Shown here: positions 1 to 34,732 of the stretch, piece by piece
How positions within the stretch are numbered: position 1 is the first letter of the stretch
Layout of the letters: every line of letters begins with the position of its first letter
NCBI GenBank assembly: GCA_025435555.1
Contig: JAIWWG010000169.1
Location: 1 to 34,732, forward strand
DNA length: 34,732 nt
From: Chytriomyces cf. hyalinus JEL632
Lineage: Eukaryota; Chytridiomycota; Chytridiomycetes; Chytridiales; Chytriomycetaceae
Direction of reading: 5' to 3'
Position numbers and translations under genes: made by a program
The notes under the pieces: generated by a model
What the model was told of the DNA's origin: nothing
Seen by the model: only the letters and a program-made list of their open reading frames with translations
Databases searched by the model: none

Positions 1-1368
1 GTCCAGCGAAGGATGTTGTTGCGTGTCTTGCGGTCAATTCCCTTGCAGGCAGTCAGATACGGCCGGACTGGGTCTTTGGTTTCGACTTGGATTGCGCCAG
101 CAATGGTGTCCAGGTTGTTGTCCAGGTTGACGATGGATTCCTTGCGCAGCTTCTTGCGAGCATTGTCAGACAGCGCTTGTTTTGGCTTCGGAGGGTACCG
201 GAACGGAACTTCAGCTGGAGGTGGGGGAACCAGTGGTTGCTGTCGAAAATCAATCCATTTAGCATCCACATGAGTCACAAGTGGGTTGGAGCGAGCAAGG
301 CGGGGAAGACATTCCTGAAATGGTTTGTCAGCACCAAGCAGAGCGCCGCGCCAGAAACGAACAGCCGGGATAGAACGATCAGTTGAGTTATGCAATCGGG
401 AGGACCACATGAGATTGAGCTCGGTAGCACGGTGTTTGAATGGTTCGACTTGCAGCAGCTTGTGGAGAGCGGCAGTGGACGTGTTGCGGGGTGTTGATGT
501 GAGAGTCCGTAGTGCAAGACGTTGGACCGACTCGTACAACTTGAGCGTGGACGCGGATGGGAGCTTGAGAGCAATGCCATATTCAAGGACCGGCCGAATG
601 AAACTCCTGTAGATAGTAACAGAAGCTGCAGGAGCCCAGCCCATTGCATTCATACCTACCGATGCCAGCGCCACAATGACACCACGCGCTTTTGAAGTTC
701 GTTCCTTTGCCAGCAGAGCCCAGTTGATTCCGTGTTGGCCAAAAGGGATGCCGAGATACGGGGCACATTGCTGGGATGGAAGGTCCACGTTGTAGAGCTT
801 GAGAGGTACATCACGTAGTGCTGGAACAGGACCGAGATAGATGCACTTGGATGGCGAGAACCGGATGCCGACAGTGTTGGACCATTCCTCACACGTTCGG
901 AGCAGGACTGCGAGATCATGTTGATTTGCAGCTACCAAGGACGTATCGTCTGCAAACAGGAGGTTATTGAGATGGATACCGTTGATTCGAATTCGCGGGA
1001 TTCCAGGAGCACGTAGCCGAATTGAGAGACCATGGATGTGACAGTTGAACAAAATCGGGGACAGAGTAGCACCCTGCAAAAGACCTCGTTCGTTGTCAAT
1101 CGGATCACTAATCACGCCAGCCACCACCAGACAGCACGAGGTTGTGATCGAAAAGATCCTGGAGCCGTGCAAGCATGAATTCGTCCCGGCCGACGACTTG
1201 TGTGAGCATTTGCAAAGAACCCTTCCGATCGACTTCGGCATATGCCGCTTTGAGGTCCAGCAGGATAGTCGAAGCATGTTCATGGTGTTCAGGGTTTCGT
1301 GGAGAACCATGGCTTGATCGAGCGAGGACCGACCGGGTCTGAAGCACCTTGAAAGTCTCGAGTTGTTG
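1..1368 (-). mobile_element. B0: family B non-LTR element, 5'-truncated, 3' end outside window
   Basis: Positions 1-1139 match B2 from 8193 onward essentially base for base. The copy begins abruptly (its 5' side) at a telomeric joint at 1369, inside the reverse transcriptase region, without the A-tract found at full-length 5' ends. Its 3' end and 3'UTR lie beyond the left edge. Between about 1140 and 1368 it carries roughly ten small differences from the other B copies, mostly single-base indels, while the rest is clean. Confidence 0.9.
1..1368 (-). pseudogene. ORF2 fragment (RT core to pre-knuckle region), family B
   Basis: This corresponds to about residues 688-1144 of the 1273-aa family B ORF2 seen complete in B3. 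It holds the RT palm with the LDIKAAYD-type motif (read here as LDLKAAYAE in the degraded part) and the LLFADDT motif, but no endonuclease. The CCHC knuckle falls just outside the window. There is no start codon, because the 5' end is cut at the telomeric joint. An extra G near 1140-1141 and further indels up to 1368 break the frame; from about 1139 leftwards the frame is open to the window edge. It is a dead copy whether or not the indels are real. Confidence 0.85.
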
Positions 1369-1379
1369 CCTAACCCTAC
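1369..1379. repeat. Telomeric joint 1 (B0/B1)
   Basis: The sequence reads CCTAACCCTAC, one A short of the consensus CCTAACCCTAAC. It separates the truncated 5' side of B0 from the 3' end of B1. The missing A lies inside a zone rich in single-base indels and may be an error. Confidence 0.9.
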
Positions 1380-1558
1380 GTTTTCAGTTTCTTTTAATCA
1401 AGTTACACAGTAACACAAGTGCGGGGTGAAAGATAGCAAAAATCACTCAAAAAAGTTCAAGAACTCCAAAGAATCAGAAGTAAAGTGCGGAATGTTAAGA
1501 AAACAGATGATCGGTAAAGGTAATAAGATATGTATGGTCAGTTCGGCTTGACGGTTGA
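1379..1558 (-). other. 3'UTR of B1, with small hairpin
   Basis: This non-coding tail of family B lies between the ORF2 stop (TTA on the plus strand at 1559-1561) and the telomeric joint. A 5-bp inverted repeat GTTAC-ACA-GTAAC lies at 1402-1414, about 24 nt from the 3' terminus, as in the other B copies. Confidence 0.75.
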
Positions 1559-2153
1559 TTATCCAGGCTCCGGGTTTTGCCGTGGTCGCCCAAGCGGGGC
1601 TCCCCGGGTTGAGGTATGCGATTTCGCGGTCTTCGAGGCGGGCAGTGGTCGTGCGGGTGCATCTGGCTCGGCCAGTAGCCATTGGCTTGCTGGTTGGAGG
1701 TGCGACATTCGGTGTAGATGAGAGCTACGGCAGAAGAGACTTCGGTGTACGTGTCGATTTCGGAGGGCGGTGTATTCCGGACTTCATTCAGGATCGTATC
1801 AAGCCAGGTCATTCGGCCGGCAGGAGGTGCAAGCGTGTCCCAGTTGATGCGCAGGAGAGCAGTGGCAACCAGAACAGTCAGCAGCATGGATCGGGTCAGT
1901 ACGTCGTTGCACTTGAGGCACGGTTCGTGTCGGGGTGACGGCACCAAGAGTCCAGCGAAGGATGTTGTTGCGTGTCTTGCGGTCAATTCCCTTGCAGGCA
2001 GTCAGATACGGCCGGACTGGGTCTTTGGTTTCGACTTGGATTGCGCCAGCAATGGTGTCCAGGTTGTTGTCCAGGTGACGATGGATTCCTTGCGCAGCTT
2101 CTTGCGAGCATTGTCAGACAGCGCTTGTTTTGGCTTCGGAGGGTACGGAACGG
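1559..2153 (-). pseudogene. ORF2 C-terminal fragment, family B
   Basis: It covers about residues 1076-1273 of family B ORF2, including the CCHC knuckle region (residues 1154-1169 in B3) and the proline/arginine-rich tail. The frame is broken by several one-base gains and losses relative to B2 and B3: near 1645 (extra G in a G run), 1672 (lost C), 1690-1705, 1870-1895, 1935 (extra G), 2074 (lost T) and 2146 (lost C). It has no start codon and no RT, so no active product is expected. Confidence 0.8.
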
Positions 2154-2164
2154 CCTAATCCTAA
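2154..2164. repeat. Telomeric joint 2 (B1/A1), variant unit
   Basis: The sequence reads CCTAATCCTAA, so the second hexamer has T in place of C compared with the other joints. It lies between truncated B1 and the 3' end of A1. Confidence 0.9.
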
Positions 2165-2356
2165 CGTTTTCAGTGTGTCTTTATTGCTTGATAAAGCGCG
2201 CTTTCAAAATGGTAATCGGTTCCCTTTTTGGGCCGTGTTTGGTAAGGATACAGAGAAAAAAACGACTAAGTCGCGAAAAAAAATTTCGAAATGGTTAAAT
2301 GTAAAAGTTGACAGAAAATGTCGATCTGCCAACAACAGCAGCGCAAGTCCGCCGCA
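2165..2356 (-). other. 3'UTR of A1 with three short inverted repeats
   Basis: The 192-nt tail between the ORF2 stop and the telomeric joint contains a perfect palindrome AAAGCGCGCTTT at 2193-2204. It also has CGACT-A-AGTCG at 2263-2273 and CGAAA-n5-TTTCG at 2274-2288. The terminal bases CGTTTTCAGT (plus strand) are identical to those of family B. In non-LTR elements the 3'UTR is where the reverse transcriptase recognises its RNA. That these stems play that role here is inference. Confidence 0.7.
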
Positions 2357-5300
2357 TCAGCCGCCTCGTCCACGGCCTCTCGGTCGACCTCCTCGGTTCC
2401 GGATCGCCCCGCGGTGGGGTGCTTGTGCGTTTGATGGCCCGCTTCGGTAAGTTGGTTTGAATTTCGCTGGGTTGTAGTGGGCGTTCATGATGGCGGTGGC
2501 CTGAACTCGGATGCTTCGCAGGCCCTCGTAGTCCGCGAAGATGGCGTCGAGCTCTTGCTGGAGCGTAGCGGTGCTGGCGTCGATGATCTCGCTGTATCCG
2601 CCGCAGGCGAGTCGGATCGTGTTGATGGCCTGGTAAGTGGCTTCGATTCTTGTATTGGTCCCGGATTTGAACTCCAGCTTGCTAATGGCTTCGTCGATGA
2701 TAGTGGCTCCATGCGCGAGGAGTTCTGGTGGCGGTCCGAGATCGTTGTCGAAGGCGGCTTGCAGGGCGGGTTCAATGCCGGAGCACTCAATGCCATGCTG
2801 GCGGGACAGTTCGACGCCGCACGTGCGGCACTCTTGGTGGTTGCATATACGGCCAAGGAGCCAGAGGAGGATGGTGCGGGAGACTGGTCTGGAAATTGCG
2901 GGGCCGGCCATGACAAGCGCGTGGCGCTGCTTGCGGGTCGCAGGGACTGGGAGAATTTTCGATGTCCGGGCTTGGGATTTCTGTTGAAGCGCGAGCATGT
3001 CTTGGTGGTGCCATTCGTCAATGGTGTCTTCGGGGATCTTGTGGGTGGATCCACGAGGAGTGATGAGCATGGGTTGACGATTGTTGACGGTGAGCGGGTT
3101 GACAATGAGTGCGAGGCGGGGAAGTGATCGGAAGTGTGGGTTGTGTGCGAGGGTGTGCTTGATGAGTGATGTGGATTCGGGTCTGTGGTCTCGTTCGAGG
3201 CCTTGGCGGTATGTGTGGAGTGTGAGGTTGCGAGTGTCGTTGGACTGGTGGAGACGGTAGTAGTAGGCAGCATTGAGGATGAGGTTACGTGTTTTGATAG
3301 TGGGAACTGATGATAGTAGGTGTAGCGAGGCGATAGATGTGGAGGTGGGTACTGAGTAGAGGATACGGAGGCATGTGTTCTGGAATTTCTGGAGTGGCTG
3401 GAGTTCTTCTGTCGTGAGCGGACGAATTGCGAGACCATATTCGAGTTGCGAGCGAATAAAGACTGGGTACATATATAGACTGTGCAGGGTTCGAAAACCA
3501 AAACCATTAAACCCTTTTCCCTTCATCCAGGACAGTGTCTTCTTGGCATCGGTGATTCTTTTTGATGTTGATGCGGTCATGTCGATTCCTGTGGCGGTCA
3601 TTGTCATTCCTACGTAGCTGGTGCTGTCTCTTTGTGCGATTTCGATTCCATTCATTTTGATGCACATCTCGGTCGGTCCGACAGCGACGCTTTTGTGTGG
3701 CGCCCAGGTGACGCCCTTCTTCTTACCCCATTCTGCGACTGTGTTGATGATTTGCTGAAGTGTGTGTTTGTTGCGTGCGAAAACTGTAGTGTCATCTGCG
3801 AAAAGGAGTGAGTTGATGCGGTGGGGTCCGACGCGAATACATGCATTCTGGTACAGGTCACGGAGTGTTGCTGGGAGCGAGTTGATGGAGATGTTGAAGA
3901 GGGGGGGTGCTGAGAGTGTTCCTTGTAGGAGACCACGGGTAACTGGGATATCTGCAGATTTGGAGCCGGATACGAGTAGACGGGCGACGTTGTGGTCAAA
4001 CAGGCATCTGAAGATGGGGATGAGTACTGAGTGGGTAATCTGTGGATTGGGGTCTGACGGGTTTTCGAACATTTCTGTCCAGAGGAGGGGGCGATTGGTA
4101 CAATCGTAAGCTGCTTGGATGTCGAGGTATACTGCGTGGAGGTCTGGGTGGGCTGCGATGATTTCGTGGAGGGTGAGTAGCTGATCGAGGGTTGAGCGGT
4201 TGCGTCGGAAGCCACCTTGTGCAGTGTCAGTGAACGAGTTAGTGCGGTGTTCAAGGAGGTGACGGAAGCAACCCTCATACACCATCCGAATACGACAGGT
4301 AAGCGATATGGGACGATAATTGGCGACGTCATGTTGATCACCCTTGTTTTTGTAGACCAGTGCCACGTTGGCGACATTCCACTCGGTGGGTGTTGCGAGA
4401 AGTGCAGTGAAGATGCGGAATGCGAGGGTGAGGGGATAAGCTGTGATAATGATTTCAGTCTCCGGATCCTTGGGTCCCTTGACTAACTCTCCATGTATTC
4501 CATCTTCTCCAGCTGCTTTTCCTGAGGGCATCCAGGCAACCAGGCTATGCACGTTTTCTTCCTTAATGATATCTGCGACAGATGTTTTTGTGAGTGGGGT
4601 TCGGGGGGATCGGGGATTGGTTGTGTCAAGTGCGATGGGGTTGGGTTGGTCTTCTCCTTTTGGGGGTGAGCCAAACGTTGTTTTGAAGTGTTGCGCGTAT
4701 TGATCCATTTTATCCGGTCGCAGAGCGCAGTTGGATCGCAGACTACGAGCACGTTGGCAGGCAATCCGTTTGGCTTCTGCGCTCGGGTCATACACTCTGG
4801 TGTCAGTGACTGCGTTGTAGAGGCGTTTCCTCGAGCGCTTGGCTGCTTTTCGAACAATGATGTTGATATATCGAAGTTTACCGGCACGTTCTCTCCGCGT
4901 GATGGGGTCCAGTCCAGCTTCAAGCATCGCGTCCTGGGCTTCAGTGCGCCAACGCATCAGCTCTTTGAGATGGTCCTCAATCATATCCGCCTTGAGAGCG
5001 CCACCATGAAACTTAACCACACCAAGGGCTTTTCTCGCAGCTGAACGAATCCAGTCAGATACTAAGTCCCAAGCACGGTCAGCAATATCGACGCGGTCTT
5101 CCCATGTGACTGGTCCGGCCGTGAGTCGATGGTGCTCGATTTCCTCAATTGTTGCAGTGAGTACTTGGTTGATTTCTCCTTCCCTTTTCTCAAGTTCCTC
5201 ACGATACTGATCCATTCTGCCCTGCAGAGCACGGATGTTGATGCGTTCGAATGGGGGTTTTCGAAAGCCGGCCAAACCGGTCACTTCGAATGTCAAGAGA

Positions 5301-6004
5301 TGGTGGTCGGAGCCAATCGCGGTTTCGTTGTCCAGTACTGTTAAATTCGAGACACGCGTGGCTCCAGGCCCATTGGCAAAGACGAGATCAGTGATCCCTT
5401 TTCCACCGTTGGTGCTCCATGTTGTCCATTTCCCCTGGACCGGGTCGACGCGAAGCCAGTCACCATCATCAAGCCATTTTTCAATCCACGTTCTGCGTTG
5501 ACCATTTACGCCAGAGTTCGGGACTGTGCTATGATCACCAACACGAATGTGGCGAGCATTGAGGTCTCCAACCATAATGATTGGCGATCCGATGTTCTGC
5601 TGCTGAAGCCGCGTCATCATCAGATCGAATGCGGTAAGTGTTGCTGCTCCTTCAGAGGGAGCCAAATACGCGCTAACTAAAAGTGTGTCTCCAAGGCGGA
5701 CTACCATCCATCTACCGTCGTCATCACTGATTTCGAAAATAGACGTTAGCCTGCCAGTTGCATCGATCATCATCAACCCATTACGAGCTTTGGTTACCCC
5801 GCGAGCAGGGTCGCCGATGAGAGTCTCTCCGCGTGTTTCTGCTATCACATTTCTCATAGGGTTTGTTGCCGATTTTCTGAGCCCAGTATCCGCGAGGATT
5901 AAATAGTCTAACTTTTTGTGTTTCATGAGGGATTCAATGTGGTGTCCTTCACCGATGAGGTTTCTTCGCGCGTTCAAAAATCCGATTTTGGTGTGCTCAA
6001 TCAT
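2357..6004 (-). CDS. Family A ORF2: APE endonuclease / reverse transcriptase (1215 aa)
   Basis: This is the enzyme of target-primed reverse transcription. The N-terminal APE-like endonuclease spans about residues 5-240, with N11, GDLN (146-149), ITDLVF (D206) and SDHH (232-235). The position where family B and most relatives have Glu (ETWL) is Asp39-Thr40. The RT domain spans about 470-790, with YRPIS (563-567), QGGFR (596-600), the palm Asp in LDIQAAYD (D628) and LLFADD (D737, D738). A zinc knuckle follows, C1059-x2-C1062-x7-H1070-x3-C1074. The tail is rich in Arg-Gly (about 1195-1215). No RNase H domain was seen. The ATG at 6004 overlaps the ORF1 stop (ATGA), so translation probably depends on termination-reinitiation. 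The frame is identical in A2 and A4. Confidence 0.95.
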   Translation of the reverse strand: MIEHTKIGFLNARRNLIGEGHHIESLMKHKKLDYLILADTGLRKSATNPMRNVIAETRGETLIGDPARGVTKARNGLMMIDATGRLTSIFEISDDDGRWMVVRLGDTLLVSAYLAPSEGAATLTAFDLMMTRLQQQNIGSPIIMVGDLNARHIRVGDHSTVPNSGVNGQRRTWIEKWLDDGDWLRVDPVQGKWTTWSTNGGKGITDLVFANGPGATRVSNLTVLDNETAIGSDHHLLTFEVTGLAGFRKPPFERINIRALQGRMDQYREELEKREGEINQVLTATIEEIEHHRLTAGPVTWEDRVDIADRAWDLVSDWIRSAARKALGVVKFHGGALKADMIEDHLKELMRWRTEAQDAMLEAGLDPITRRERAGKLRYINIIVRKAAKRSRKRLYNAVTDTRVYDPSAEAKRIACQRARSLRSNCALRPDKMDQYAQHFKTTFGSPPKGEDQPNPIALDTTNPRSPRTPLTKTSVADIIKEENVHSLVAWMPSGKAAGEDGIHGELVKGPKDPETEIIITAYPLTLAFRIFTALLATPTEWNVANVALVYKNKGDQHDVANYRPISLTCRIRMVYEGCFRHLLEHRTNSFTDTAQGGFRRNRSTLDQLLTLHEIIAAHPDLHAVYLDIQAAYDCTNRPLLWTEMFENPSDPNPQITHSVLIPIFRCLFDHNVARLLVSGSKSADIPVTRGLLQGTLSAPPLFNISINSLPATLRDLYQNACIRVGPHRINSLLFADDTTVFARNKHTLQQIINTVAEWGKKKGVTWAPHKSVAVGPTEMCIKMNGIEIAQRDSTSYVGMTMTATGIDMTASTSKRITDAKKTLSWMKGKGFNGFGFRTLHSLYMYPVFIRSQLEYGLAIRPLTTEELQPLQKFQNTCLRILYSVPTSTSIASLHLLSSVPTIKTRNLILNAAYYYRLHQSNDTRNLTLHTYRQGLERDHRPESTSLIKHTLAHNPHFRSLPRLALIVNPLTVNNRQPMLITPRGSTHKIPEDTIDEWHHQDMLALQQKSQARTSKILPVPATRKQRHALVMAGPAISRPVSRTILLWLLGRICNHQECRTCGVELSRQHGIECSGIEPALQAAFDNDLGPPPELLAHGATIIDEAISKLEFKSGTNTRIEATYQAINTIRLACGGYSEIIDASTATLQQELDAIFADYEGLRSIRVQATAIMNAHYNPAKFKPTYRSGPSNAQAPHRGAIRNRGGRPRGRGRGG

Positions 6005-7575
6005 TGCTCCATCTGAGTTTCCTCAGAGTTGGATCCTGACTGATTACCCTGTTTTGGCGCAGCAAGTTCTCGAATACGAGCCTGCATTGCCATGTCACAT
6101 CCCTCGAGTGCAGCCTGCTTCACAAGCGCAAAACGAGCTCTGCGATAAACCCCAGCACGGCGCGCGCACATGCATTCTTTCATCATGTTCTCATTCGCAT
6201 CCGGTTGGTGTGGCGGACTATCCAACGGGTTGAAATCGCTGAGCAAGATCTGCTTCGCGTCGAGTTTCTGACGAATATCGGCTTCATGACGACCATCAAA
6301 GAAGATCTCAGCAATGGAGAATCCACGACCAAGTGGACTGATGTCCTCGATATACGGCAGTTCGAACGTGTCGCGGAAGATGGCGCGTGTTGCTTTCATG
6401 GGTCCGTTCAATTTGGCTTCCTTCTTCAAGAATCTGAGCGATACAAAGCACGACTTAATGGATTCTGCACGGACGGGGGCTGGGCCTTCACGGGCTGGCG
6501 CATTGAAGTCTGATCGAATCGACATGGCAGCAATCTCTTTGTACGAGGGAGCAGCTTTGAAGTTTTTGTTGAACGTTTGGGTACGGTTCATGTTTTTTGG
6601 GCGGTACACAGGGCCATTCGCATGGGATTCAGTGGGTCTACCACGGCTGGCGGAGCGCGCAGCGCGACTGGCAGCCCGGGTGGACTTTTGTTGTTGTTGT
6701 TGCTGTTGTGGTTGTTGTTGTTGTGGCTGTTGAGTTTGGGGTTGCTGTGAAAGACGGTTGCGCATGTCGTTGATTTCACGTTGGAGGGCTGCATTGTTTT
6801 CGATCTGTTGTTTCAATTGTGCACTCTGTTCACGGATCATTTCCATCTGTGTGTTGATGGTGCGCATAAATTCGTCGACACGTTTGTTGTTCTCAAGAAC
6901 CATTTTTTGGAGTTCAGCAAGGTTCATTGCTGGGTTCGACATTTTTTCGTTTTTCTCGCAGTCAAAGTCAATTTCAAATTCAGAATCACTGGAGTCGACA
7001 GCGTCAACGGTGCGTTTGATGCCTGCGGGCTGTGGAATAAAGGGGACTGCCTTCTTTCGCTGTTTTCGATTGTAATGCGCCCGGAGATGGTCTTCGAGCT
7101 GTGCTGATTCAAGTGCGAGATCGATAAGATCTTGGATTCCAGAATTACGACAGGCGTCTCTGAGTCGGGGTCTGCTGGCACACTCGCTGTTCTTACACTG
7201 GATAGACGTGAGACTGATGCCGAATGGGGTTTTATTGCCACAGGCACTCTTCGTTTGAAATTCGAAATCACAGACTGAATTGCCAATGATCTGTTTGCAC
7301 TTGAGGAGCTTCTTTGCGAATTGCCAAGTTGCTCGTTCGAACTGGGTGAAGCCGTCTGGGGTGGCGGCTTTGACGACAACTCGGAGGTTGGTGTTGATGA
7401 CGTAATCTGATGCTGATGCACTAAACGCAAACGGGGTCGGTTCGGGCTTAACGCTCGCTGATTCGGGTTCTTCGGATGCTTTTGGACGCTTAAAGATCGA
7501 CGAGATCCTCGGCTGCTGTTGAATGTTGGTGGTGGGTTGCTGTGGTTGCGCTCTTGGGGATTTCGGTGCTGGCAA
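6001..7575 (-). CDS. Family A ORF1: putative RNA-binding protein with Cys cluster, coiled coil and RRM-like domain
   Basis: The ORF is open for 524 codons with no ATG until codon 212 (position 6942). The start given is a TTG, the only near-cognate codon between the upstream in-frame TGA (7593-7591) and the open frame; the true start is uncertain. The N-terminal part holds QPRISSIF (21-28, PIP-box-like) and cysteines C93, C102, C112, C127, C132 and C142, aligning with a Cys cluster in family B ORF1. A coiled coil follows at about 213-278, then a Gln-rich run (278-297), a basic Arg/Ser stretch (300-313), and a C-terminal domain (about 372-500) with a beta-alpha-beta-beta-alpha-beta pattern typical of RRM folds, containing LLSDFNPL. 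There are no gag-type CCHC knuckles. The likely role is coating element RNA as a ribonucleoprotein. It ends in the ATGA overlap with ORF2. Confidence 0.85.
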   Translation of the reverse strand: MPAPKSPRAQPQQPTTNIQQQPRISSIFKRPKASEEPESASVKPEPTPFAFSASASDYVINTNLRVVVKAATPDGFTQFERATWQFAKKLLKCKQIIGNSVCDFEFQTKSACGNKTPFGISLTSIQCKNSECASRPRLRDACRNSGIQDLIDLALESAQLEDHLRAHYNRKQRKKAVPFIPQPAGIKRTVDAVDSSDSEFEIDFDCEKNEKMSNPAMNLAELQKMVLENNKRVDEFMRTINTQMEMIREQSAQLKQQIENNAALQREINDMRNRLSQQPQTQQPQQQQPQQQQQQQKSTRAASRAARSASRGRPTESHANGPVYRPKNMNRTQTFNKNFKAAPSYKEIAAMSIRSDFNAPAREGPAPVRAESIKSCFVSLRFLKKEAKLNGPMKATRAIFRDTFELPYIEDISPLGRGFSIAEIFFDGRHEADIRQKLDAKQILLSDFNPLDSPPHQPDANENMMKECMCARRAGVYRRARFALVKQAALEGCDMAMQARIRELAAPKQGNQSGSNSEETQMEQ

Positions 7576-7606
7576 TGAACCAACACAATTTCAAGAGAGT
7601 TTTTTT
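6943..7606 (-). promoter_or_regulatory. AUG-free 5' segment of A1 (664 nt)
   Basis: From the 5' end of the element to the first ATG (6942) there is no ATG in any sense frame, while the opposite strand of the same segment has twelve. The first ATG is in frame with ORF1 (codon 212) and has A at -3. This suggests that AUGs are selected against so that scanning ribosomes reach codon 212. Near-cognate initiation near the 5' end could also make a longer ORF1 protein. Conserved in A2 and A4. Confidence 0.7.
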
Positions 7607-7617
7607 CCTAACCCTAA
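7607..7617. repeat. Telomeric joint 3 (A1/B2)
   Basis: CCTAACCCTAA lies between the seven-T tract (plus strand) at the intact 5' end of A1 and the 3' end of B2. Confidence 0.95.
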
Positions 7618-7801
7618 CGTTTTCAGTTTCTTTTAATCAAGTTACACAGTAACACAAGTGCGGGGTTGAAAGATAGCAAAAATCACTCAAAAAAAGTTCA
7701 AGAACTCCAAAGAATCAGAAGTAAAGTGCGGAAATGTTAAGAAAACAGATGATCGGTAAAGGTAATAAGATATGTATGGTCAGTTCGGGCTTGACGGTTG
7801 A
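7618..7801 (-). other. 3'UTR of B2 with GTTAC hairpin
   Basis: This 184-nt family B tail has the inverted repeat GTTAC-ACA-GTAAC at 7641-7653. Only the terminal CGTTTTCAGT (plus strand) is shared with the family A tail; the rest is unrelated. Confidence 0.75.
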
Positions 7802-26601: not shown

Positions 26602-26630
26602 TGAACCAACACAATTTCAAGAGAGTTTTT
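25969..26630 (-). promoter_or_regulatory. AUG-free 5' segment of A4
   Basis: As in A1 and A2, the sense strand contains no ATG upstream of 25968. The segment is slightly shorter because of the five-base A-tract. Confidence 0.65.
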
Positions 26631-26641
26631 CCTAACCCTAA
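26631..26641. repeat. Telomeric joint 7 (A4/B3)
   Basis: CCTAACCCTAA lies between the A4 5' A-tract (five T on the plus strand) and the 3' end of B3. Confidence 0.95.
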
Positions 26642-26825
26642 CGTTTTCAGTTTCTTTTAATCAAGTTACACAGTAACACAAGTGCGGGGTTGAAAGATAG
26701 CAAAAATCACTCAAAAAAAGTTCAAGAACTCCAAAGAATCAGAAGTAAAGTGCGGAAATGTTAAGAAAACAGATGATCGGTAAAGGTAATAAGATATGTA
26801 TGGTCAGTTCGGGCTTGACGGTTGA
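26642..26825 (-). other. 3'UTR of B3
   Basis: This 184-nt tail appears identical to B2. The GTTAC-ACA-GTAAC inverted repeat is at 26665-26677. Confidence 0.75.
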
Positions 26826-29800
26826 TTATCCAGGCTCCGGGTTTTGCCGTGGTCGCCCAAGCGGGGCTCCCCCGGGTTGAGGTATGCGATTTCGCGGTCT
26901 TCGAGGCGGCAGTGGTCGTGCGGGTGCATCTGGCTCGGCCCAGTAGCCATTGGCTTGCTGTTGGAGGTGGCGACATTCGGTGTAGATGAGAGCTACGGCA
27001 GAAGAGACTTCGGTGTACGTGTCGATTTCGGAGGGCGGTGTATTCCGGACTTCATTCAGGATCGTATCAAGCCAGGTCATTCGGCCGGCAGGAGGTGCAA
27101 GCGTGTCCCAGTTGATGCGCAGGAGAGCAGTGGCACCAGAACAGTCAGCAGCATGGGATCGGGTCAGTACGTCGTTGCACTTGAGGCACGGTTCGTGTCG
27201 GGTGACGGCACCAAGAGTCCAGCGAAGGATGTTGTTGCGTGTCTTGCGGTCAATTCCCTTGCAGGCAGTCAGATACGGCCGGACTGGGTCTTTGGTTTCG
27301 ACTTGGATTGCGCCAGCAATGGTGTCCAGGTTGTTGTCCAGGTTGACGATGGATTCCTTGCGCAGCTTCTTGCGAGCATTGTCAGACAGCGCTTGTTTTG
27401 GCTTCGGAGGGTACCGGAACGGAACTTCAGCTGGAGGTGGGGGAACCAGTGGTTGCTGTCGAAAATCAATCCATTTAGCATCCACATGAGTCACAAGTGG
27501 GTTGGAGCGAGCAAGGCGGGGAAGACATTCCTGAAATGGTTTGTCAGCACCAAGCAGAGCGCCGCGCCAGAAACGAACAGCCGGGATAGAACGATCAGTT
27601 GAGTTATGCAATCGGGAGGACCACATGAGATTGAGCTCGGTAGCACGGTGTTTGAATGGTTCGACTTGCAGCAGCTTGTGGAGAGCGGCAGTGGACGTGT
27701 TGCGGGGTGTTGATGTGAGAGTCCGTAGTGCAAGACGTTGGACCGACTCGTACAACTTGAGCGTGGACGCGGATGGGAGCTTGAGAGCAATGCCATATTC
27801 AAGGACCGGCCGAATGAAACTCCTGTAGATAGTAACAGAAGCTGCAGGAGCCCAGCCCATTGCATTCATACCTACCGATGCCAGCGCCACAATGACACCA
27901 CGCGCTTTTGAAGTTCGTTCCTTTGCCAGCAGAGCCCAGTTGATTCCGTGTTGGCCAAAAGGGATGCCGAGATACGGGGCACATTGCTGGGATGGAAGGT
28001 CCACGTTGTAGAGCTTGAGAGGTACATCACGTAGTGCTGGAACAGGACCGAGATAGATGCACTTGGATGGCGAGAACCGGATGCCGACAGTGTTGGACCA
28101 TTCCTCACACGTTCGGAGCAGGACTGCGAGATCATGTTGATTTGCAGCTACCAAGGACGTATCGTCTGCAAACAGGAGGTTATTGAGATGGATACCGTTG
28201 ATTCGAATTCGCGGGATTCCAGGAGCACGTAGCCGAATTGAGAGACCATGGATGTGACAGTTGAACAAAATCGGGGACAGAGTAGCACCCTGCAAAAGAC
28301 CTCGTTCGTTGTCAATCGGATCACTAATCACGCCAGCCACCACCAGACAGCACGAGTTGTGATCGAAAAGATCCTGGAGCCGTGCAAGCATGAATTCGTC
28401 CAGGCCGAAGACTTGTGTGAGCATTTGCCAAAGAACCCTTCGATCGACTTCGTCATATGCCGCTTTGATGTCCAGCAGGATAGTCGAAGCATGTTCATTG
28501 GTGTTCAGGGTTTCGTGGAGAACCATGGCTTGATCGAGCGAGGACCGACCGGGTCTGAAGCCACCTTGAAAGTCATCGAGTTGTTGCATTACGGGTCCAA
28601 GTTCAGGAACAAGCAGCCGCTCGTAGAGTCGTCGTATCGTACTTGTCAGTGCAATAGGTCGGTAGTTTGCAATGTCCTGATCAGATCCCTTCTTCTTGAA
28701 GACTGGCACAATGAGCGCCTTCCTCCAGTCAGATGGAATAGTTGCAGCAGCATGGACCATGGGCAGGAAAACACTGAGAACGTCAGCCATGAGATCGCCA
28801 CCGGCTTTGATGAGTTCAGCAGGAATTCCATCGGATCCAGTAGCCTTTCCGAGTGGGAGTCCAGCAATCGCAGACATGATCGCATCCGGGTTGAAGACTT
28901 CCTGAGTTGGACGCGACTGGATTTCCTCAAGCGCAGGGGGTCCAGGTTGGGGATGTCCAGTCGGAGGTGCTCCAAAGGTAGTTCGAAAATGGGCAGCGTG
29001 TTCATTGATTTTCGCCGGGTCCAGTTTGCAGACAGTGCGGTCTTTTCGCGACTTGGCTCCTTTTACCATGCGCATGAACGAGGACATGTTTTGTGGGACT
29101 GTGAGCTTATCGACAGCATCTTCGAAGAGCACGCGCTTGCGTGTGGTCAGATCCGCCCGGTAAGCACGCTGAGTGTTGGTCAGTTCGGAAGCAAGGCGTT
29201 TGATTTCGAGACGAGACAACTGGCCACGCTCGATTTCCTGTTGCACGTTCGCAAGTTCTTGCTGCACGTTGTCCCGACTTTGTTCAAGCTCATCAGTCCA
29301 AAACTCCGATGGCAGATGGTCAGAGACTTGGAGGACACCAATTGACTTTGACGCAGCATTTCGGACCCATGACAGGAAGTGTTCCCAGGCCTCGTTGATC
29401 AACTCTTGAGTTCTAGCACGGTTTGGTGTGTGAGTATTGTTCAAGAGCGAGGAGCGAGAAGTACTTCCCGGGAGGGGAGCGCCTACTGCAGGTACCGCGG
29501 TGTGTGCATCGCACTGTGATGCACCCGCGATGTACCCCACAGCAGGGCTTTCAAAGCTCGTTCGCAGCAATTCCAGGCATAAGCACATGTCCTGCTGCGT
29601 AGATGGGTTGGGAGCATCGACAGAACGTGGATGGGAGTGGGATGGACCAGCGGACTGAGAAGGACTGTCAGACATGTGAGTGGTGGCTCTGGGGCAATCT
29701 GCAGTGTGGGTAACAGGATCAAGAGAAGCATGGGAAGTACTTCCCGGAGGGTTGGCGCCTACTGCAGGTGCCACGGTGTGTGCATCGCACTGTGATACAC

Positions 29801-30647
29801 CCGCAACGTATCCCACAGCAGGGCTTTCCAAGCGTGTTCGCAGCAATTCCAGTTGATCCATGATCTCCTGCTGCGTGGACTCCAGCTCCTCAGCAAAACG
29901 CTGATGGTATTTGGCAGTTGTGAGGCGACGAACATTCCAGCGCGCAAAAGACTTGGGCTTGGTTTCGACATCCAGTGGCACAGAAAATGTCAGCGGCCGA
30001 TGGTCCGAACCTCCAAGTGACTCGCCTTCATGAACTGTGAGGTTAGAGACTGGGAAGCTCGAGAGTACAACATCCGGAATCCCTCGACCACCACCAGCCC
30101 ACGACGTCCATTTCCCAGACTCCGGGATTTGAAGCGCAAGTCCAGAGTTGAACAGTTCCTGCTGCATATACGTTCCACGTGTGTTTGTGAGTGAATCACC
30201 AGCATCCGTCATCCGTGCGTTCAGATCGCCAACCAAAAGACAACGCAACGTAAAGCCTTCAGATAACGTTTCCGCTTTTTGAAGCATGTCCCCGATTACC
30301 CGATTGTCAGCAGAGGGGGGGATGTAGGCAGTGATGAGGATAAGATCAGAGATGCGCATTGCGCAATAGAACCCCAAGGGATCTTCATAGATAACTCGGA
30401 ATTGGGGGGAGAGAGTTGCAGTTGAGAACGCCAAAATGCCGCCAAAATTGCGCCGACCTCCCGCAATTGCCTCCGTGTTTGTACTTGTGATATTAAATAG
30501 GTGTGGTCGAAAAGGAATGGAGGATGTTGGGGAGAGCCACGTTTCCACCATTAAAGAAAGGTCAACAGATTGCGCAGACTTGAATCTCAGGACTTCTTCG
30601 GCTTTGCCAGACAGCCCGTTGAGATTCGAAAATGCGATTTTGATCAT
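26826..30647 (-). CDS. Family B ORF2: APE endonuclease / reverse transcriptase (1273 aa)
   Basis: The N-terminal APE endonuclease spans about residues 1-225, with N8, E35-T36 (ETWL), GDLN (140-143), D192 and S214-D215-H216, all canonical. A linker at about 226-440 contains a diverged internal duplication (residues 266-309 and 358-401). The RT domain spans about 580-880, with YRPIALT (662-668), QGGFR (694-698), D726 in LDIKAAYD and LLFADD (D828, D829). A zinc knuckle follows, C1154-x2-C1157-x7-H1165-x3-C1169, with exactly the spacing seen in family A. The C-terminus is rich in Pro and Arg and lacks the RGG tail of family A. No RNase H was seen. The ATG at 30647 overlaps the ORF1 stop (30644-30646). 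It should cut and prime at telomeric repeats. Confidence 0.95.
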   Translation of the reverse strand: MIKIAFSNLNGLSGKAEEVLRFKSAQSVDLSLMVETWLSPTSSIPFRPHLFNITSTNTEAIAGGRRNFGGILAFSTATLSPQFRVIYEDPLGFYCAMRISDLILITAYIPPSADNRVIGDMLQKAETLSEGFTLRCLLVGDLNARMTDAGDSLTNTRGTYMQQELFNSGLALQIPESGKWTSWAGGGRGIPDVVLSSFPVSNLTVHEGESLGGSDHRPLTFSVPLDVETKPKSFARWNVRRLTTAKYHQRFAEELESTQQEIMDQLELLRTRLESPAVGYVAGVSQCDAHTVAPAVGANPPGSTSHASLDPVTHTADCPRATTHMSDSPSQSAGPSHSHPRSVDAPNPSTQQDMCLCLELLRTSFESPAVGYIAGASQCDAHTAVPAVGAPLPGSTSRSSLLNNTHTPNRARTQELINEAWEHFLSWVRNAASKSIGVLQVSDHLPSEFWTDELEQSRDNVQQELANVQQEIERGQLSRLEIKRLASELTNTQRAYRADLTTRKRVLFEDAVDKLTVPQNMSSFMRMVKGAKSRKDRTVCKLDPAKINEHAAHFRTTFGAPPTGHPQPGPPALEEIQSRPTQEVFNPDAIMSAIAGLPLGKATGSDGIPAELIKAGGDLMADVLSVFLPMVHAAATIPSDWRKALIVPVFKKKGSDQDIANYRPIALTSTIRRLYERLLVPELGPVMQQLDDFQGGFRPGRSSLDQAMVLHETLNTNEHASTILLDIKAAYDEVDRRVLWQMLTQVFGLDEFMLARLQDLFDHNSCCLVVAGVISDPIDNERGLLQGATLSPILFNCHIHGLSIRLRAPGIPRIRINGIHLNNLLFADDTSLVAANQHDLAVLLRTCEEWSNTVGIRFSPSKCIYLGPVPALRDVPLKLYNVDLPSQQCAPYLGIPFGQHGINWALLAKERTSKARGVIVALASVGMNAMGWAPAASVTIYRSFIRPVLEYGIALKLPSASTLKLYESVQRLALRTLTSTPRNTSTAALHKLLQVEPFKHRATELNLMWSSRLHNSTDRSIPAVRFWRGALLGADKPFQECLPRLARSNPLVTHVDAKWIDFRQQPLVPPPPAEVPFRYPPKPKQALSDNARKKLRKESIVNLDNNLDTIAGAIQVETKDPVRPYLTACKGIDRKTRNNILRWTLGAVTRHEPCLKCNDVLTRSHAADCSGATALLRINWDTLAPPAGRMTWLDTILNEVRNTPPSEIDTYTEVSSAVALIYTECRHLQQQANGYWAEPDAPARPLPPRRPRNRIPQPGGAPLGRPRQNPEPG
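29458..29576 (-). repeat. Internal direct repeat in family B ORF2 linker, copy 2
   Basis: This 119-nt segment is about 88% identical by eye to 29734-29852 and in the same reading frame, 276 nt (92 codons) away. It encodes the second ESPAVGYIAGASQCDAH-type block. Confidence 0.85.
29734..29852 (-). repeat. Internal direct repeat in family B ORF2 linker, copy 1
   Basis: This is the partner of 29458-29576, encoding the ESPAVGYVAGVSQCDAH-type block between endonuclease and RT. The spacing is an exact multiple of three, so the duplication kept the frame. Confidence 0.85.
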
Positions 30648-32527
30648 TCTTGGTCGGCGGCGTCAGCCGCGGGACCAAGATCCAGATTGGACACAGACAT
30701 GGCAACATCGTCTTGACTATCGACAAACTCAGTAGATTCCGGAACTGGGTCGAGAGTCACAAAATCAGTTAGCGACAGTGTGTCTGGGGCAGCAAATTTC
30801 GCAAACGCGCTACGGTGGGGGCGTGGGGGTGCAAGAAGGGAGTCGGATGGGGAGCCTCGGATGGTTTCAAACACTTTCTGCGTGGCTTCCTTGAGTTGCT
30901 GAGAGGCACCGGCAAGGATGGCAGCACGGAGATTGACAGTACGTGCGGCTTTGCACAAAAACGCGAGGCGCTTGGCAGCTTTTTCTGTCTGGGTGGAGTC
31001 AAGGCGATTTCCGTCAATGTCGGATATGAGTGGGTTGAAGGCTGCAAGGAGGACTTGTTGGCCACGCTCCCTAAGAACTCGCACCACTTCCAGAACAACA
31101 TCAGTCGGACAATACAGCTCAATGATGGAGTTACCAATAGATGAGGTAAGAGCCACATTGTGGCGAACCCCCATCTGTCCCACAAACGCATCGATCAAAT
31201 GTTTCCGGTCCCGGAAGGAACATCCGCGCAACTGACGACTGCTGTGGAGTTCAACACGGATCACTGCAAACTTTTTCGGTTCAGGGACAGCTTTCGCCAT
31301 CTGTAATGCCTTCTTTTGACGCATGCGGTGTGTTTTTTCATCATACTGCTGCTGAGTTTGCGGCGCGCGTTGACGAGATTCGCAAGATGGTGGAGGGGCA
31401 CGACGCGTTCCATTACGTGCAACAGTGGACCAGGCGGCTTCAACAACCTGTGTGGAAGTGTTTTCAACAGCAACGGGTACAGAAACAGTTGTTGTTGAGG
31501 CAGGGGCAGCACCTGGGACAATACGCCCTCCAGGTCCAGTGCGACCTCCACGACCGCTTTTTCGAGAGGTACGCACATGGGGCTGCACGTGGGTGGACTG
31601 GGCTCCATTGGGAGTTGGTGCTGCGAGCGTGGGAGCAGTTGAAGCACTGATGGAAGCCAAGAGGGCTGTTGCTGTGCTCAATGGCTGCGCCACAGTTGGC
31701 TGACACTCATTTGCTGTGCCTGATGACTTACCCACACCAACTGAGCCCTGCTGCATCTGGGTGACCAGCTGGGCCAGCAGCGCAATCAGGGACTGCAGCT
31801 GCGTCTGAAGGGAAGCTGTAGCGGCCTCTGCTGCCTCTGCACGCTGCTGCCAGTTGACAGCTGTGGCAGGCACAGCAGGGGGTGGAAATGCATTCGAAAT
31901 CACTGATGGCGACATTTCGGAGGCTGCAGCGGTGGTCTGCATGGCTGGCGCGGGTGCCATGAAGCTGAATTCGCTCTGTGGAAGGCCTGCGGAACCAGCT
32001 GGGGTGGTGAGATTGGTTGTTGAGGTTGTTGCTGTGCTTGCTGAGCCTGCTGAGCCTGCTGGTGGCTGATCCACAGAGCGGCCAGCGGTGGCTGCAGCAA
32101 ATGAGAGGGTCTGTTGGATCAGACGACTCTGGGAAGCACTGGGTGTGGAAGTAGAGACTGCAGTGGCAGTGTCTGCTTCGGAGTTCTGGCGGCGGCGCTT
32201 TGCTGCTGTGCCTGTGGTGGAAGTGACTGGGACCAGCTTACCGAAAGCCTTCTCCCACTCTGCGTACAGGTCCGCAGAGGCCGACCCTCCTGCCTTCAGC
32301 GCTGCGTTGAGTCTGCAACGTTTGGTGCACGTGGTGCACTGCATTTGGATGGTGGAGAACCCAAACTGGTTCGGATTCCCTCCCACCCCAAGGCTCTTCA
32401 GAGAGGCCGACCCGCATCCCGCCACGGGACAGCGAGCCGTCCCCTTGAGGCGCTTTGCGATGTTGAGCTCCAGCATCACGAACGGGTGCTTGGTGTTGGT
32501 GCTGCTGCTTTTGATGACCGTGGACAT
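30644..32527 (-). CDS. Family B ORF1: putative RNA-binding protein with zinc-ribbon-like N-terminus (627 aa)
   Basis: It starts at the first ATG of the element (32527, context GAAATGT, G at -3), only 19 nt from the 5' terminus including the A-tract. The N-terminal Cys cluster is C33-x4-C38-x25-C64-x2-C67-x3-C71, with FGFSTIQMQC matching FGISLTSIQC of family A. Then come a basic KRRR (110-113), a long Ser/Thr/Ala/Pro-rich low-complexity region (about 115-225), a short coiled coil (about 226-260), an Arg/Gly stretch (320-335), and an RRM-like domain (about 418-500) ending in LLAAFNPL. There are no gag CCHC knuckles. The C-terminus is acidic. The probable role is element RNP assembly. It is followed by ORF2 through an ATGA overlap. 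Confidence 0.88.
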   Translation of the reverse strand: MSTVIKSSSTNTKHPFVMLELNIAKRLKGTARCPVAGCGSASLKSLGVGGNPNQFGFSTIQMQCTTCTKRCRLNAALKAGGSASADLYAEWEKAFGKLVPVTSTTGTAAKRRRQNSEADTATAVSTSTPSASQSRLIQQTLSFAAATAGRSVDQPPAGSAGSASTATTSTTNLTTPAGSAGLPQSEFSFMAPAPAMQTTAAASEMSPSVISNAFPPPAVPATAVNWQQRAEAAEAATASLQTQLQSLIALLAQLVTQMQQGSVGVGKSSGTANECQPTVAQPLSTATALLASISASTAPTLAAPTPNGAQSTHVQPHVRTSRKSGRGGRTGPGGRIVPGAAPASTTTVSVPVAVENTSTQVVEAAWSTVARNGTRRAPPPSCESRQRAPQTQQQYDEKTHRMRQKKALQMAKAVPEPKKFAVIRVELHSSRQLRGCSFRDRKHLIDAFVGQMGVRHNVALTSSIGNSIIELYCPTDVVLEVVRVLRERGQQVLLAAFNPLISDIDGNRLDSTQTEKAAKRLAFLCKAARTVNLRAAILAGASQQLKEATQKVFETIRGSPSDSLLAPPRPHRSAFAKFAAPDTLSLTDFVTLDPVPESTEFVDSQDDVAMSVSNLDLGPAADAADQE

Positions 32528-32546
32528 TTCAAACAGACTTTTTTTT

Positions 32547-32556
32547 CTAACCCTAA
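32547..32556. repeat. Telomeric joint 8 (B3/B4)
   Basis: CTAACCCTAA, one C shorter than the others, directly follows an eight-T tract (plus strand). The missing C next to a homopolymer may be real or an error. Confidence 0.92.
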
Positions 32557-32740
32557 CGTTTTCAGTTTCTTTTAATCAAGTTACACAGTAACACAAGTGC
32601 GGGGTTGAAAGATAGCAAAAATCACTCAAAAAAAGTTCAAGAACTCCAAAGAATCAGAAGTAAAGTGCGGAAATGTTAAGAAAACAGATGATCGGTAAAG
32701 GTAATAAGATATGTATGGTCAGTTCGGGCTTGACGGTTGA
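32557..32740 (-). other. 3'UTR of B4
   Basis: This 184-nt tail has the same sequence as B2 and B3, with the GTTAC-ACA-GTAAC inverted repeat at 32580-32592. Confidence 0.75.
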
Positions 32741-34732
32741 TTATCCAGGCTCCGGGTTTTGCCGTGGTCGCCCAAGCGGGGCTCCCCCGGGTTGAGGTAT
32801 GCGATTTCGCGGTCTTCGAGGCGGCAGTGGTCGTGCGGGTGCATCTGGCTCGGCCCAGTAGCCATTGGCTTGCTGTTGGAGGTGGCGACATTCGGTGTAG
32901 ATGAGAGCTACGGCAGAAGAGACTTCGGTGTACGTGTCGATTTCGGAGGGCGGTGTATTCCGGACTTCATTCAGGATCGTATCAAGCCAGGTCATTCGGC
33001 CGGCAGGAGGTGCAAGCGTGTCCCAGTTGATGCGCAGGAGAGCAGTGGCACCAGAACAGTCAGCAGCATGGGATCGGGTCAGTACGTCGTTGCACTTGAG
33101 GCACGGTTCGTGTCGGGTGACGGCACCAAGAGTCCAGCGAAGGATGTTGTTGCGTGTCTTGCGGTCAATTCCCTTGCAGGCAGTCAGATACGGCCGGACT
33201 GGGTCTTTGGTTTCGACTTGGATTGCGCCAGCAATGGTGTCCAGGTTGTTGTCCAGGTTGACGATGGATTCCTTGCGCAGCTTCTTGCGAGCATTGTCAG
33301 ACAGCGCTTGTTTTGGCTTCGGAGGGTACCGGAACGGAACTTCAGCTGGAGGTGGGGGAACCAGTGGTTGCTGTCGAAAATCAATCCATTTAGCATCCAC
33401 ATGAGTCACAAGTGGGTTGGAGCGAGCAAGGCGGGGGAAGACATTCCTGAAATGGTTTGTCAGCACCAAGCAGAGCGCCGCGCCAGAAACGAACAGCCGG
33501 GATAGAACGATCAGTTGAGTTATGCAATCGGGAGGACCACATGAGATTGAGCTCGGTAGCACGGTGTTTGAATGGTTCGACTTGCAGCAGCTTGTGGAGA
33601 GCGGCAGTGGACGTGTTGCGGGGTGTTGATGTGAGAGTCCGTAGTGCAAGACGTTGGACCGACTCGTACAACTTGAGCGTGGACGCGGATGGGAGCTTGA
33701 GAGCAATGCCATATTCAAGGACCGGCCGAATGAAACTCCTGTAGATAGTAACAGAAGCTGCAGGAGCCCAGCCATTGCATTCATACCTACCGATGCCAGC
33801 GCCACAATGACACCACGCGCTTTTGAAGTTCGTTCCTTTGCCAGCAGAGCCCAGTTGATTCCGTGTTTGGCCAAAAGGGATGCCGAGATACGGGGCACAT
33901 TGCTGGGATGGAAGGTCCACGTTGTAGAGCTTGAGAGGTACATCACGTAGTGCTGGAACAGGACCGAGATAGATGCACTTGGATGGCGAGAACCGGATGC
34001 CGACAGTGTTGGACCATTCCTCACACGTTCGGAGCAGGACTGCGAGATCATGTTGATTTGCAGCTACCAAGGACGTATCGTCTGCAAACAGGAGGTTATT
34101 GAGATGGATACCGTTGATTCGAATTCGCGGGATTCCAGGAGCACGTAGCCGAATTGAGAGACCATGGATGTGACAGTTGAACAAAATCGGGGACAGAGTA
34201 GCACCCTGCAAAAGACCTCGTTCGTTGTCAATCGGATCACTAATCACGCCAGCCACCACCAGACAGCACGAGTTGTGATCGAAAAGATCCTGGAGCCGTG
34301 CAAGCAATGAATTCGTCCAGGCCGAAGACTTGTGTGAGCATTTGCCAAAGAACCCTTCGATCGACTTCGTCATATGCCGCTTTGATGTCCAGCAGGATAG
34401 TCGAAGCATGTTCATTGGTGTTCAGGGTTTCGTGGAGAACCATGGCTTGATCGAGCGAGGACCGACCGGGTCTGAAGCCACCTTGAAAGTCATCGAGTTG
34501 TTGCATTACGGGTCCAAGTTCAGGAACAAGCAGCCGCTCGTAGAGTCGTCGTATCGTACTTGTCAGTGCAATAGGTCGGTAGTTTGCAATGTCCTGATCA
34601 GATCCCTTCTTCTTGAAGACTGGCACAATGAGCGCCTTCCTCCAGTCAGATGGAATAGTTGCAGCAGCATGGACCATGGGCAGGAAAACACTGAGAACGT
34701 CAGCCATGAGATCGCCACCGGCTTGATGAGTT
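32741..34732 (-). pseudogene. ORF2 (C-terminal part), family B, frameshifted and incomplete
   Basis: It covers about residues 610-1273 of family B ORF2. From 33430 to the stop it reads cleanly, with the CCHC knuckle. To the right the frame is broken by an extra G (33433-33437), a lost C (about 33772), an extra T (33865-33867), an extra A (34306-34307) and a lost T (about 34723). The RT motifs LLFADD and LDIKAAYD are all present but spread over different frames. All changes are in homopolymers, so the break may be an assembly error near a contig edge. Confidence 0.82.

What the first reader, a model, noticed from the sequence alone, without database searches (positions are those of the whole stretch)
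1..34732. Mixed telomeric array of two APE-type, two-ORF non-LTR families
Nine consecutive copies from two divergent families stand head to tail on one strand, each separated only by about two telomeric hexamers. Known telomere-associated LINE-type elements include TRAS/SART of silkworm (APE-type, TTAGG), GilM/GilT of Giardia, MoTeR of Magnaporthe, Cnl1 of Cryptococcus and Zepp of green algae. A composite array in which two APE-type families interleave in TTAGGG repeats, share their termini and leave almost no free repeat may be a distinct telomere system, possibly contributing to chromosome-end maintenance.
Basis: partly seen in the sequence, partly recalled or inferred. Interest (0 to 1): 0.9.

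Follow-up and report, generated by a model that had tools for sequence, protein, structure and literature searches.

The report
Jumping genes packed into fungal telomeres
In what looks like a swimming-spore fungus, chromosome ends carry head-to-tail arrays of several related jumping genes, one copy after another with only about two telomere repeats between them, a lifestyle best known from silkworms.

Summary
The 34.7 kb contig is nine copies of two non-LTR retrotransposons (A, 5.4 kb; B, 5.9 kb), all on the minus strand; its eight joints carry 9-11 bases of telomeric repeat. Both families have an ORF1 and an APE-endonuclease/RT ORF2 (32% identical). Elsewhere in the genome near-identical copies form arrays of one polarity at contig ends: on 7 of 8 contigs over 50 kb the 3' ends face the near end (the eighth has one copy 120 kb inside). 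At four array bases telomere-like repeats lie between chromosomal DNA and the first element. Further families (E, F, C) join these arrays. Spacing is strikingly constant: 9-12 bases at 49 of 51 joints, including 12 of 12 joints to 5'-truncated copies with 11 different truncation points, so it is not merely array duplication. A telomerase gene is present; marker genes suggest a zoosporic fungus. Known fungal telomeric elements seen in the papers are REL-type; APE-type ones are known from insects. Best reading: telomere-specific APE LINEs inserted by target-primed reverse transcription, each copy carrying about two telomeric repeats that border the next insertion. A role in telomere maintenance and the RT clade are untested. 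New variant of a known kind.

The parts
1..1369 (-). B copy 0, 5'-truncated (5' limit at 1369), cut off by the contig start on its 3' side
   Evidence: joint at 1379, truncation point B3970 of the reference
1370..1378 (-). telomeric spacer TAGGGTTAG (one T missing)
1379..2153 (-). B copy 1, 5'-truncated, 3' part only
   Evidence: truncation point B5135
2154..2164 (-). telomeric spacer TTAGGATTAGG
2165..7606 (-). A copy 1, full length; ORF2 2357-6004, ORF1 6001-7575
7607..7617 (-). telomeric spacer TTAGGGTTAGG
7618..10275 (-). B copy 2, 5'-truncated at B3258 of the reference
10276..10286 (-). telomeric spacer TTAGGGTTAGG
10287..15728 (-). A copy 2, full length; ORF2 10478-14125, ORF1 14122-15696
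15729..15739 (-). telomeric spacer TTAGGGTTAGG
15740..21181 (-). A copy 3, full length; frames interrupted by single-base indels relative to the other copies
21182..21192 (-). telomeric spacer TTAGGGTTAGG
21193..26630 (-). A copy 4, full length
21383..25030 (-). A ORF2, 1215 aa: APE endonuclease (Exo_endo_phos_2), RT (RVT_1), C-terminal CCHC
25027..26601 (-). A ORF1, 524 aa from a TTG, N-terminal cysteine motif; 4-nt overlap with ORF2
26631..26641 (-). telomeric spacer TTAGGGTTAGG
26642..32546 (-). B copy 3, full length
26826..30647 (-). B ORF2, 1273 aa: APE endonuclease, RT, C-terminal CCHC
30644..32527 (-). B ORF1, 627 aa; 4-nt overlap with ORF2
32547..32556 (-). telomeric spacer TTAGGGTTAG
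32557..34732 (-). B copy 4, 3' part, cut off by the contig end

Best explanation
This is part of a chromosome end of a (probably zoosporic) fungus, built of telomere-specific APE-type LINEs. Shown: two-ORF families whose sense strand is the TTAGGG strand lie head to tail, with 9-12 nt of telomeric repeat at nearly every joint, no 3' poly(A) tail, and 3' ends facing the contig end where this can be judged. Inferred: ORF2's APE endonuclease nicks the CCCTAA strand in the telomere near the GGG/TTA boundary. The element RNA, whose 3' end is ACTGAAAACG followed by about two UUAGGG units, pairs with the nicked strand and is copied by target-primed reverse transcription. The 5' end is joined within the GGG of the second hexamer, and incomplete copying gives 5' truncations. 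Because each new copy ends again in ACTGAAAACG plus hexamers, it presents the same landing site, so arrays grow as chains of mixed families. Recombination or break-induced copying between ends then duplicates blocks. Telomerase presumably still adds repeats distally.
For: APE and RT domains in both families. One polarity in 12 of 12 contigs that hold more than one scored 3' end. 3' ends outward on 7 of 8 contigs over 50 kb with copies of 97% identity or more: C5, C40, C48, C60, C68, C111, C238; the eighth is C231. Unique DNA, then 21 TTAGGG units, then B on C111; unique DNA, then degenerate TTAGG(A/G) repeats, then a full A start on C60; telomere-like repeats at the bases on C48 and C68, and 23 nt of them at the edge of the C40 locus. 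C94 ends in eight TTAGGG units. Joint table: spacer 10-12 nt in 37 of 39 joints to full-length copies and 9-11 nt in 12 of 12 to truncated copies (11 distinct truncation points); a further truncated joint on C5, missed by the table, has the same spacer. A-run before full starts (part of how these were recognised) but after the spacer at 0 of 12 truncated ones, so it belongs to the 5' end. AATAAA or ATTAAA 6 and 5 nt before CTGAAAACG in A and B. First-hexamer variants recur at A or B tails with different downstream neighbours (C78:2165, C68:494846, C96:3122; C5:79665 and 84054), as expected if the tail is inherited with the element. C66 and C78 share the block B-A-A-A-B3258, which suggests copying between ends.
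Against: Contigs also end where repeats defeat assembly, so a contig end is not proof of a chromosome end; polarity and basal repeats argue against this, but few contigs are anchored. A 97% B 3' end lies 120 kb inside C231; diverged A copies (83-92%) on C10, C49 and C172 lie more than 40 kb from the end they face, C49 facing away from its nearer end. Diverged F-like ORF2 hits on C203 and C4 lie 87-97 kb from the contig end their 3' side faces, so the wider group is not confined to ends. Two of 39 full joints are longer (13 and 19 nt), and element D on C94 follows five hexamers. The two-hexamer tail cannot be told apart from residual target. No activity, nicking or transcript data; whether the endonuclease itself chooses the site is untested.
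Confidence: 0.73

Rival explanations
1. Array growth is mainly recombinational: a few insertion joints were made once and then copied by break-induced replication, unequal exchange or rolling-circle extension, as proposed for some MoTeR arrays with identical interstitial telomeres.
For: C66 and C78 share the ordered block B-A-A-A-B3258 including the same truncation point; A copies are identical apart from one tail base and single-base indels; MoTeR arrays with identical spacers were explained this way (PMC7367193, passages).
Against: Eleven different truncation points and several family orders all carry the same 9-11 nt spacer; copying a few joints does not give that. A-run lengths in the shared block differ (6, 7, 7 against 5, 7, 8), though these may be homopolymer errors.
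Confidence: 0.25
2. Template jumping: during one TPRT event the RT runs off one element RNA and continues on the 3' end of another, so that head-to-tail chains are laid down at once and the constant spacer is simply the RNA 3' end.
For: Explains mixed families, constant spacer and truncated members without a second target (joint table). Template jumping by non-LTR RTs is recalled from work on R2, not looked up here.
Against: Arrays of up to nine or more copies would need many jumps; known mainly in vitro (recalled); a poly(A) tail on the RNA would be expected at the joints and is not seen before truncated copies.
Confidence: 0.2
3. The arrays are chromosome-internal satellites that merely contain telomere-like hexamers, and lie at contig ends only because assembly breaks there.
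For: The window's contig has no unique sequence; other short array contigs were read only in part; one 97% copy is internal on C231.
Against: Outward 3' polarity on 7 of 8 long contigs with near-identical copies; 21 TTAGGG units at the base on C111; TTAGGG repeats at the very end of C94.
Confidence: 0.08
4. Assembly artefact: collapsed or chimeric joining of copies.
For: Single-base indels, more of them at the contig's left end, show incomplete polishing.
Against: The same kind of joint recurs on 15 contigs with different neighbours and truncation points, and copies sit next to unique DNA on C48, C60, C68 and C111.
Confidence: 0.03

Closest known systems
SART1/TRAS1 (silkworm)
   Same: Two ORFs, APE endonuclease and RT in ORF2, insertion into telomeric repeats of a host that keeps such repeats; SART sits in the TTAGG strand, as A and B have their sense strand on the TTAGGG strand (PMC7265360, abstract and introduction). 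Element D in the opposite orientation recalls the SART/TRAS pair.
   Different: SART ends in poly(A); A and B end in telomeric hexamers without poly(A). Telomeric SART/TRAS copies are described as full length only (PMC4700185, passages), whereas truncated copies are common here. Different kingdom; R1-clade membership not tested; TTAGG versus TTAGGG.
MoTeR (Magnaporthe) and FoTeR (Fusarium)
   Same: Fungal, telomere-inserted; MoTeR arrays have truncated members and interstitial telomere tracts (PMC7367193 and PMC12857005, passages).
   Different: They encode a C-terminal REL endonuclease of the clade with Cnl1, SLACS and CRE, in one large ORF; A and B encode an N-terminal APE endonuclease and two ORFs. 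The passages place variant repeats and new telomeres at MoTeR 5' ends, so the 5' end seems to face outward there; here the 3' end does. Most MoTeR spacers vary in length.
Zepp (Chlorella) and Tx1-1_ACar (anole)
   Same: Non-LTR elements listed as telomere-associated (PMC10088271, passages); that they are APE-type is recalled.
   Different: Joints, orientation and ORFs were not compared; no sequence on hand.
Drosophila HeT-A/TART/TAHRE
   Same: Chromosome ends made of head-to-tail non-LTR elements (PMC7265360 introduction).
   Different: Here telomeric hexamers and a telomerase gene are present, and 3' ends face outward. The Drosophila orientation (5' end outward) is recalled.

Membership tests
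Telomere-specific APE LINEs (SART/TRAS kind) | APE endonuclease and RT in ORF2 | tested here: met
   PF14529 and PF00078 over the curated cut-offs in both families
Telomere-specific APE LINEs (SART/TRAS kind) | two ORFs | tested here: met
   4-nt ORF overlap in both
Telomere-specific APE LINEs (SART/TRAS kind) | insertion in telomeric repeats at a fixed register | tested here: met
   spacer 9-12 nt at 49 of 51 joints; four array bases with telomere-like DNA. Genomic pattern only, no insertion assay
SART/TRAS | 3' poly(A) tail | tested here: not met
   telomeric hexamers follow CTGAAAACG; no A-run after the spacer at 0 of 12 truncated joints
SART/TRAS | RT in the R1 clade | not testable with these tools
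   no eukaryotic RT reference set; PDB hits are mainly L1 and R2 proteins
MoTeR/FoTeR/Cnl1 (CRE clade) | C-terminal REL endonuclease with RHD or RHN after a CCHC | tested here: not met
   APE in both; CCHC found but no RHD or RHN anywhere in either ORF2
Tad clade | RNase H domain in ORF2 (recalled as usual in the clade) | tested here: not met
   no RNase H family up to E 1
Drosophila-type telomere | telomerase and short repeats absent | tested here: not met
   Telomerase_RBD in two pieces on C172; TTAGGG runs
Zepp | L1-type RT and array structure | not tested
   no Zepp sequence on hand

The most novel reading that the evidence does not exclude
A self-propagating landing-pad system. Families with otherwise dissimilar 3' UTRs share one terminal motif, ACTGAAAACG plus two hexamers, which serves both as the RNA 3' end that pairs with the telomere and as the DNA site that the next element of any family recognises. 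Several APE LINE families thus follow one chain-growth rule and, next to telomerase, add kilobases to the chromosome ends of a flagellated fungus.
Probability: 0.3. Interest if true: 0.82.

Novelty: new variant of a known kind. Interest (0 to 1): 0.62.

Why it matters
Telomere-specific LINEs arose several times; the fungal ones named in the papers seen here are of the REL type. A multi-family APE-type system in an early-diverging fungus with a telomerase gene would be an independent case, close in logic to the silkworm, and its metronomic two-hexamer spacing gives a direct handle on how such elements choose their site. It makes testable whether LINE chains lengthen chromosome ends where telomerase is also present.

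Tried and rejected
Internal satellite and pure recombination were weighed and put down as rivals. The A-run as a poly(A) tail of the preceding copy was rejected because it is absent before 12 of 12 truncated copies and present (13 A) before the first copy on C60. Relatives in viral contigs: none (172 stretches matched a pattern, none confirmed), and none with the 3' motif. No Rfam match up to E 1, so no known 5' ribozyme; no tRNA. G-quadruplexes: 0 four-run GGG motifs on either strand of A and B; the laxer GG motif is commoner on the antisense strand (15 against 4 in A, 17 against 11 in B). The endonuclease domain of B found no related solved structure. Host by rRNA: an SSU 16-mer hits C163 once and a typed 5.8S-like query found nothing, which shows nothing either way. 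Host by markers: Fungal_trans, 13 matched pieces, and Radial_spoke, 12 matched pieces, both exon by exon; the host group is an inference. Literature: ten searches listed no paper that I recognised as describing APE-type telomeric LINEs in a fungus; several listings were cut at 12-20 of many papers, only open-licence PMC papers are held, and most hits were seen as listings only.
Full report
WHAT IS THERE. The window is a whole contig (C78 of 242; genome 37.8 Mb). It consists of nine element copies with short telomeric spacers and nothing else. Self-BLAST and the joint sequences give, from the window's high end to its low end in sense direction: B (cut by contig end), B, A, A, A, B (5'-truncated), A, B (5'-truncated), B (5'-truncated, cut by contig start). 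The eight joints carry TTAGGGTTAGG or a near variant of 9-11 nt. A copies are 5.4 kb; the four differ by no substitution except one in a telomeric tail, plus single-base indels mostly in short homopolymers. The indels look like unpolished long-read errors, and the broken frames of copy 3 may be nothing more.

PROTEINS. ORF2 of A (1215 aa) and B (1273 aa) each match PF14529 (APE-type endonuclease) and PF00078 (RVT_1) over the curated cut-offs and are 32% identical to each other. No RNase H family was found up to E 1. Both have a C-terminal CCHC and neither has RHD or RHN. The ORF1s of A, B and E have no Pfam match over the cut-off (weak coiled-coil-type hits for A), but those of A, B, E and F share an N-terminal cysteine motif in alignment (E and F are partial, 21-28% identity to A). 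ORF1 and ORF2 overlap by 4 nt in A and B. PDB matches of the RT are mainly LINE-1 and R2 proteins, which does not settle the clade.

WHERE THE COPIES LIE. Searches with the 3' 400 bases gave 25 places for A (25 candidates, all scored) and 42 for B (40 of 81 candidates scored, so a lower bound). These 67 places lie on 26 contigs; 12 of 12 contigs with more than one place are of one polarity. Contig ends attract repeats in any assembly, so I used only contigs over 50 kb. Copies of 97% identity or more lie on eight of these. On C5, C40, C48, C68, C111 and C238, and on C60 (from; its 3' end runs off the contig), the 3' ends face the near contig end. On C231 (over 120 kb, length unknown) one 97% B 3' end lies 120 kb from the end it faces. 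In the two searches that is 20 of 21 places within 36 kb of the end. The lengths of C32, C202 and C95 are not known; C32 (30 kb) and C202 (9 kb) fit, C95 cannot be judged. Diverged A copies are on C12 (92%) and C208 (84%), near ends and outward, and on C10 (87%), C49 (83%) and C172 (92%), more than 40 kb from the end their 3' side faces; C49 faces away from its nearer end. Seven contigs plus C12 and C208 point outward (9 of 9, two-sided p 0.004 by coin toss), but this count leaves out C231, C49, C10 and C172.

TELOMERIC BASES AND CAP. On C111 (992,932 bp) unique DNA is followed by 21 TTAGGG units and then a B copy that lacks about its first 83 bases; the contig ends in B's telomeric tail, and the distance fits one B copy, whose middle I did not read. 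On C60 unique DNA is followed by degenerate TTAGG(A/G) repeats and then a full A start with 13 A. C48 and C68 show degenerate telomere-like repeats before a truncated first copy; the C40 locus shows 23 nt of such repeats at its edge. The bases on C5 and C238 were not read. C94 ends in eight TTAGGG units. The exact 18-mer (CCCTAA)3 occurs only on C94, C111, C193 and C209 (35 overlapping matches, all on one strand).

SPACING. Of 59 occurrences of CTGAAAACG followed by T in the window and the merged loci, 40 rows precede a full-length start; one (C96:7002) duplicates its neighbour 7015 and is dropped, leaving 39. Twelve precede a 5'-truncated A or B copy (11 distinct points; point numbers count from a reference that begins with the 10-nt spacer). 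Seven are other cases: family F, family C, two opposite-orientation D insertions, two old copies on C10 and one on C12. Spacer length is 10-12 nt at 37 of 39 full joints (others 13 and 19) and 9-11 nt at 12 of 12 truncated joints. D follows 12 nt of repeat on C76 but five hexamers on C94. The loci came from the 3'-end and telomere searches, not from every copy. One more truncated joint, on C5 near 96,769, was missed because its motif has an extra A; its spacer is again TTAGGGTTAGG. The 21-unit tract on C111 would offer many equivalent sites, so a constant two-hexamer distance needs a rule.

MECHANISM. The sense strand is the G-rich strand, with the 3' end outward. The first cDNA strand would then be primed by a nicked C-rich strand distal to the element, which is insertion within a telomeric tract and not extension of the terminal overhang. 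There is no 3' poly(A). AATAAA (A) or ATTAAA (B) lies 6 or 5 nt before CTGAAAACG, so ordinary cleavage 10-30 nt downstream (recalled range) would end the RNA within or near the two hexamers; such an RNA end can pair with CCCTAA. This step is inferred. The A-run (5-10 A in the table, 13 on C60) belongs to the 5' end. First-hexamer variants at tails with different neighbours favour an inherited tail. What makes the next insertion fall after the second hexamer is open: recognition of the shared ACTGAAAACG boundary, template jumping, or copying of joints. The shared block in C66 and C78 shows that copying, or allelism, also occurs.

OTHER FAMILIES. E was seen by its 5' end and part of ORF1 (C94). 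F was seen by its 5' part on C5; an ORF2 41-43% identical to A follows it there and occurs also on C92, C137 (two), C10 and C203 (two), and the 3' motif follows it on C5 at 90,833. C is a truncated copy on C94 with the same terminus, as has a copy of unassigned family on C10. Other diverged hits on C4, C221, C198 and C125 (37-64%) were not assigned. The hits on C203 and C4 lie 87-97 kb from the end their 3' side faces. D is a poly(A)-tailed element in the opposite orientation after B on C76 and after C on C94. In the ORF2 search 13 full A copies are 100% identical in protein (38 of 261 candidates scored).

HOST. Telomerase_RBD is present in two adjacent pieces, Fungal_trans in 13 pieces and Radial_spoke in 12. 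Together these suggest a flagellated (zoosporic) fungus. The species is not known.

LITERATURE. Seen: PMC12857005 (abstract, passages), PMC7367193 (passages), PMC7265360 (abstract, introduction), PMC10088271 (passages), PMC4700185 (passages), PMC11797018, PMC11115238, PMC2699053 and PMC4133162 (passages). PMC3374306 is not held. REL-type fungal elements and APE-type insect elements are the nearest known kinds. The near-complete B. dendrobatidis assembly reports TTAGGG ends; the passages seen do not mention telomeric LINE arrays.

VERDICT. Real, and very probably telomeric rather than an internal satellite. A telomere-specific APE LINE system of a known general kind, in a new lineage and with an unusual 3' end and spacing. 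A maintenance role is not shown.

Noticed in passing
C76:35214-35851 and C94:22264-22815 (L049, L001): An element (D) with an A-tail of about 17-20 inserted in the opposite orientation in the telomeric repeats; its frame on C76 has no Pfam match.
   Followed up: partly
window:25027-26658 (-): A ORF1 is open from near the element's 5' end, but its first ATG codon is at residue 211 of the frame read; where B has its ATG, A reads ATT, so a near-cognate start is possible.
   Followed up: no
window:29458-29576 and 29734-29852: A 120-nt repeat (89% identical) within B ORF2, in the linker between endonuclease and RT.
   Followed up: no
window:21383-25030 (-), residue 39 of A ORF2: Where B has VETWL, A has ADTGL: an Asp in the place of the usual metal-binding Glu of APE endonucleases (motif recalled).
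   Followed up: no
C10:46807-69019: An older array with decayed joints and an F-like ORF2, about 26-48 kb inside the contig end, perhaps an internalised former telomere.
   Followed up: partly
C111:985475-986973 (L067) and C68:492956-493796 (L023): The unique DNA next to the telomeric repeats encodes a BTB and TLDc domain protein on C111 and a PAN domain on C68.
   Followed up: no
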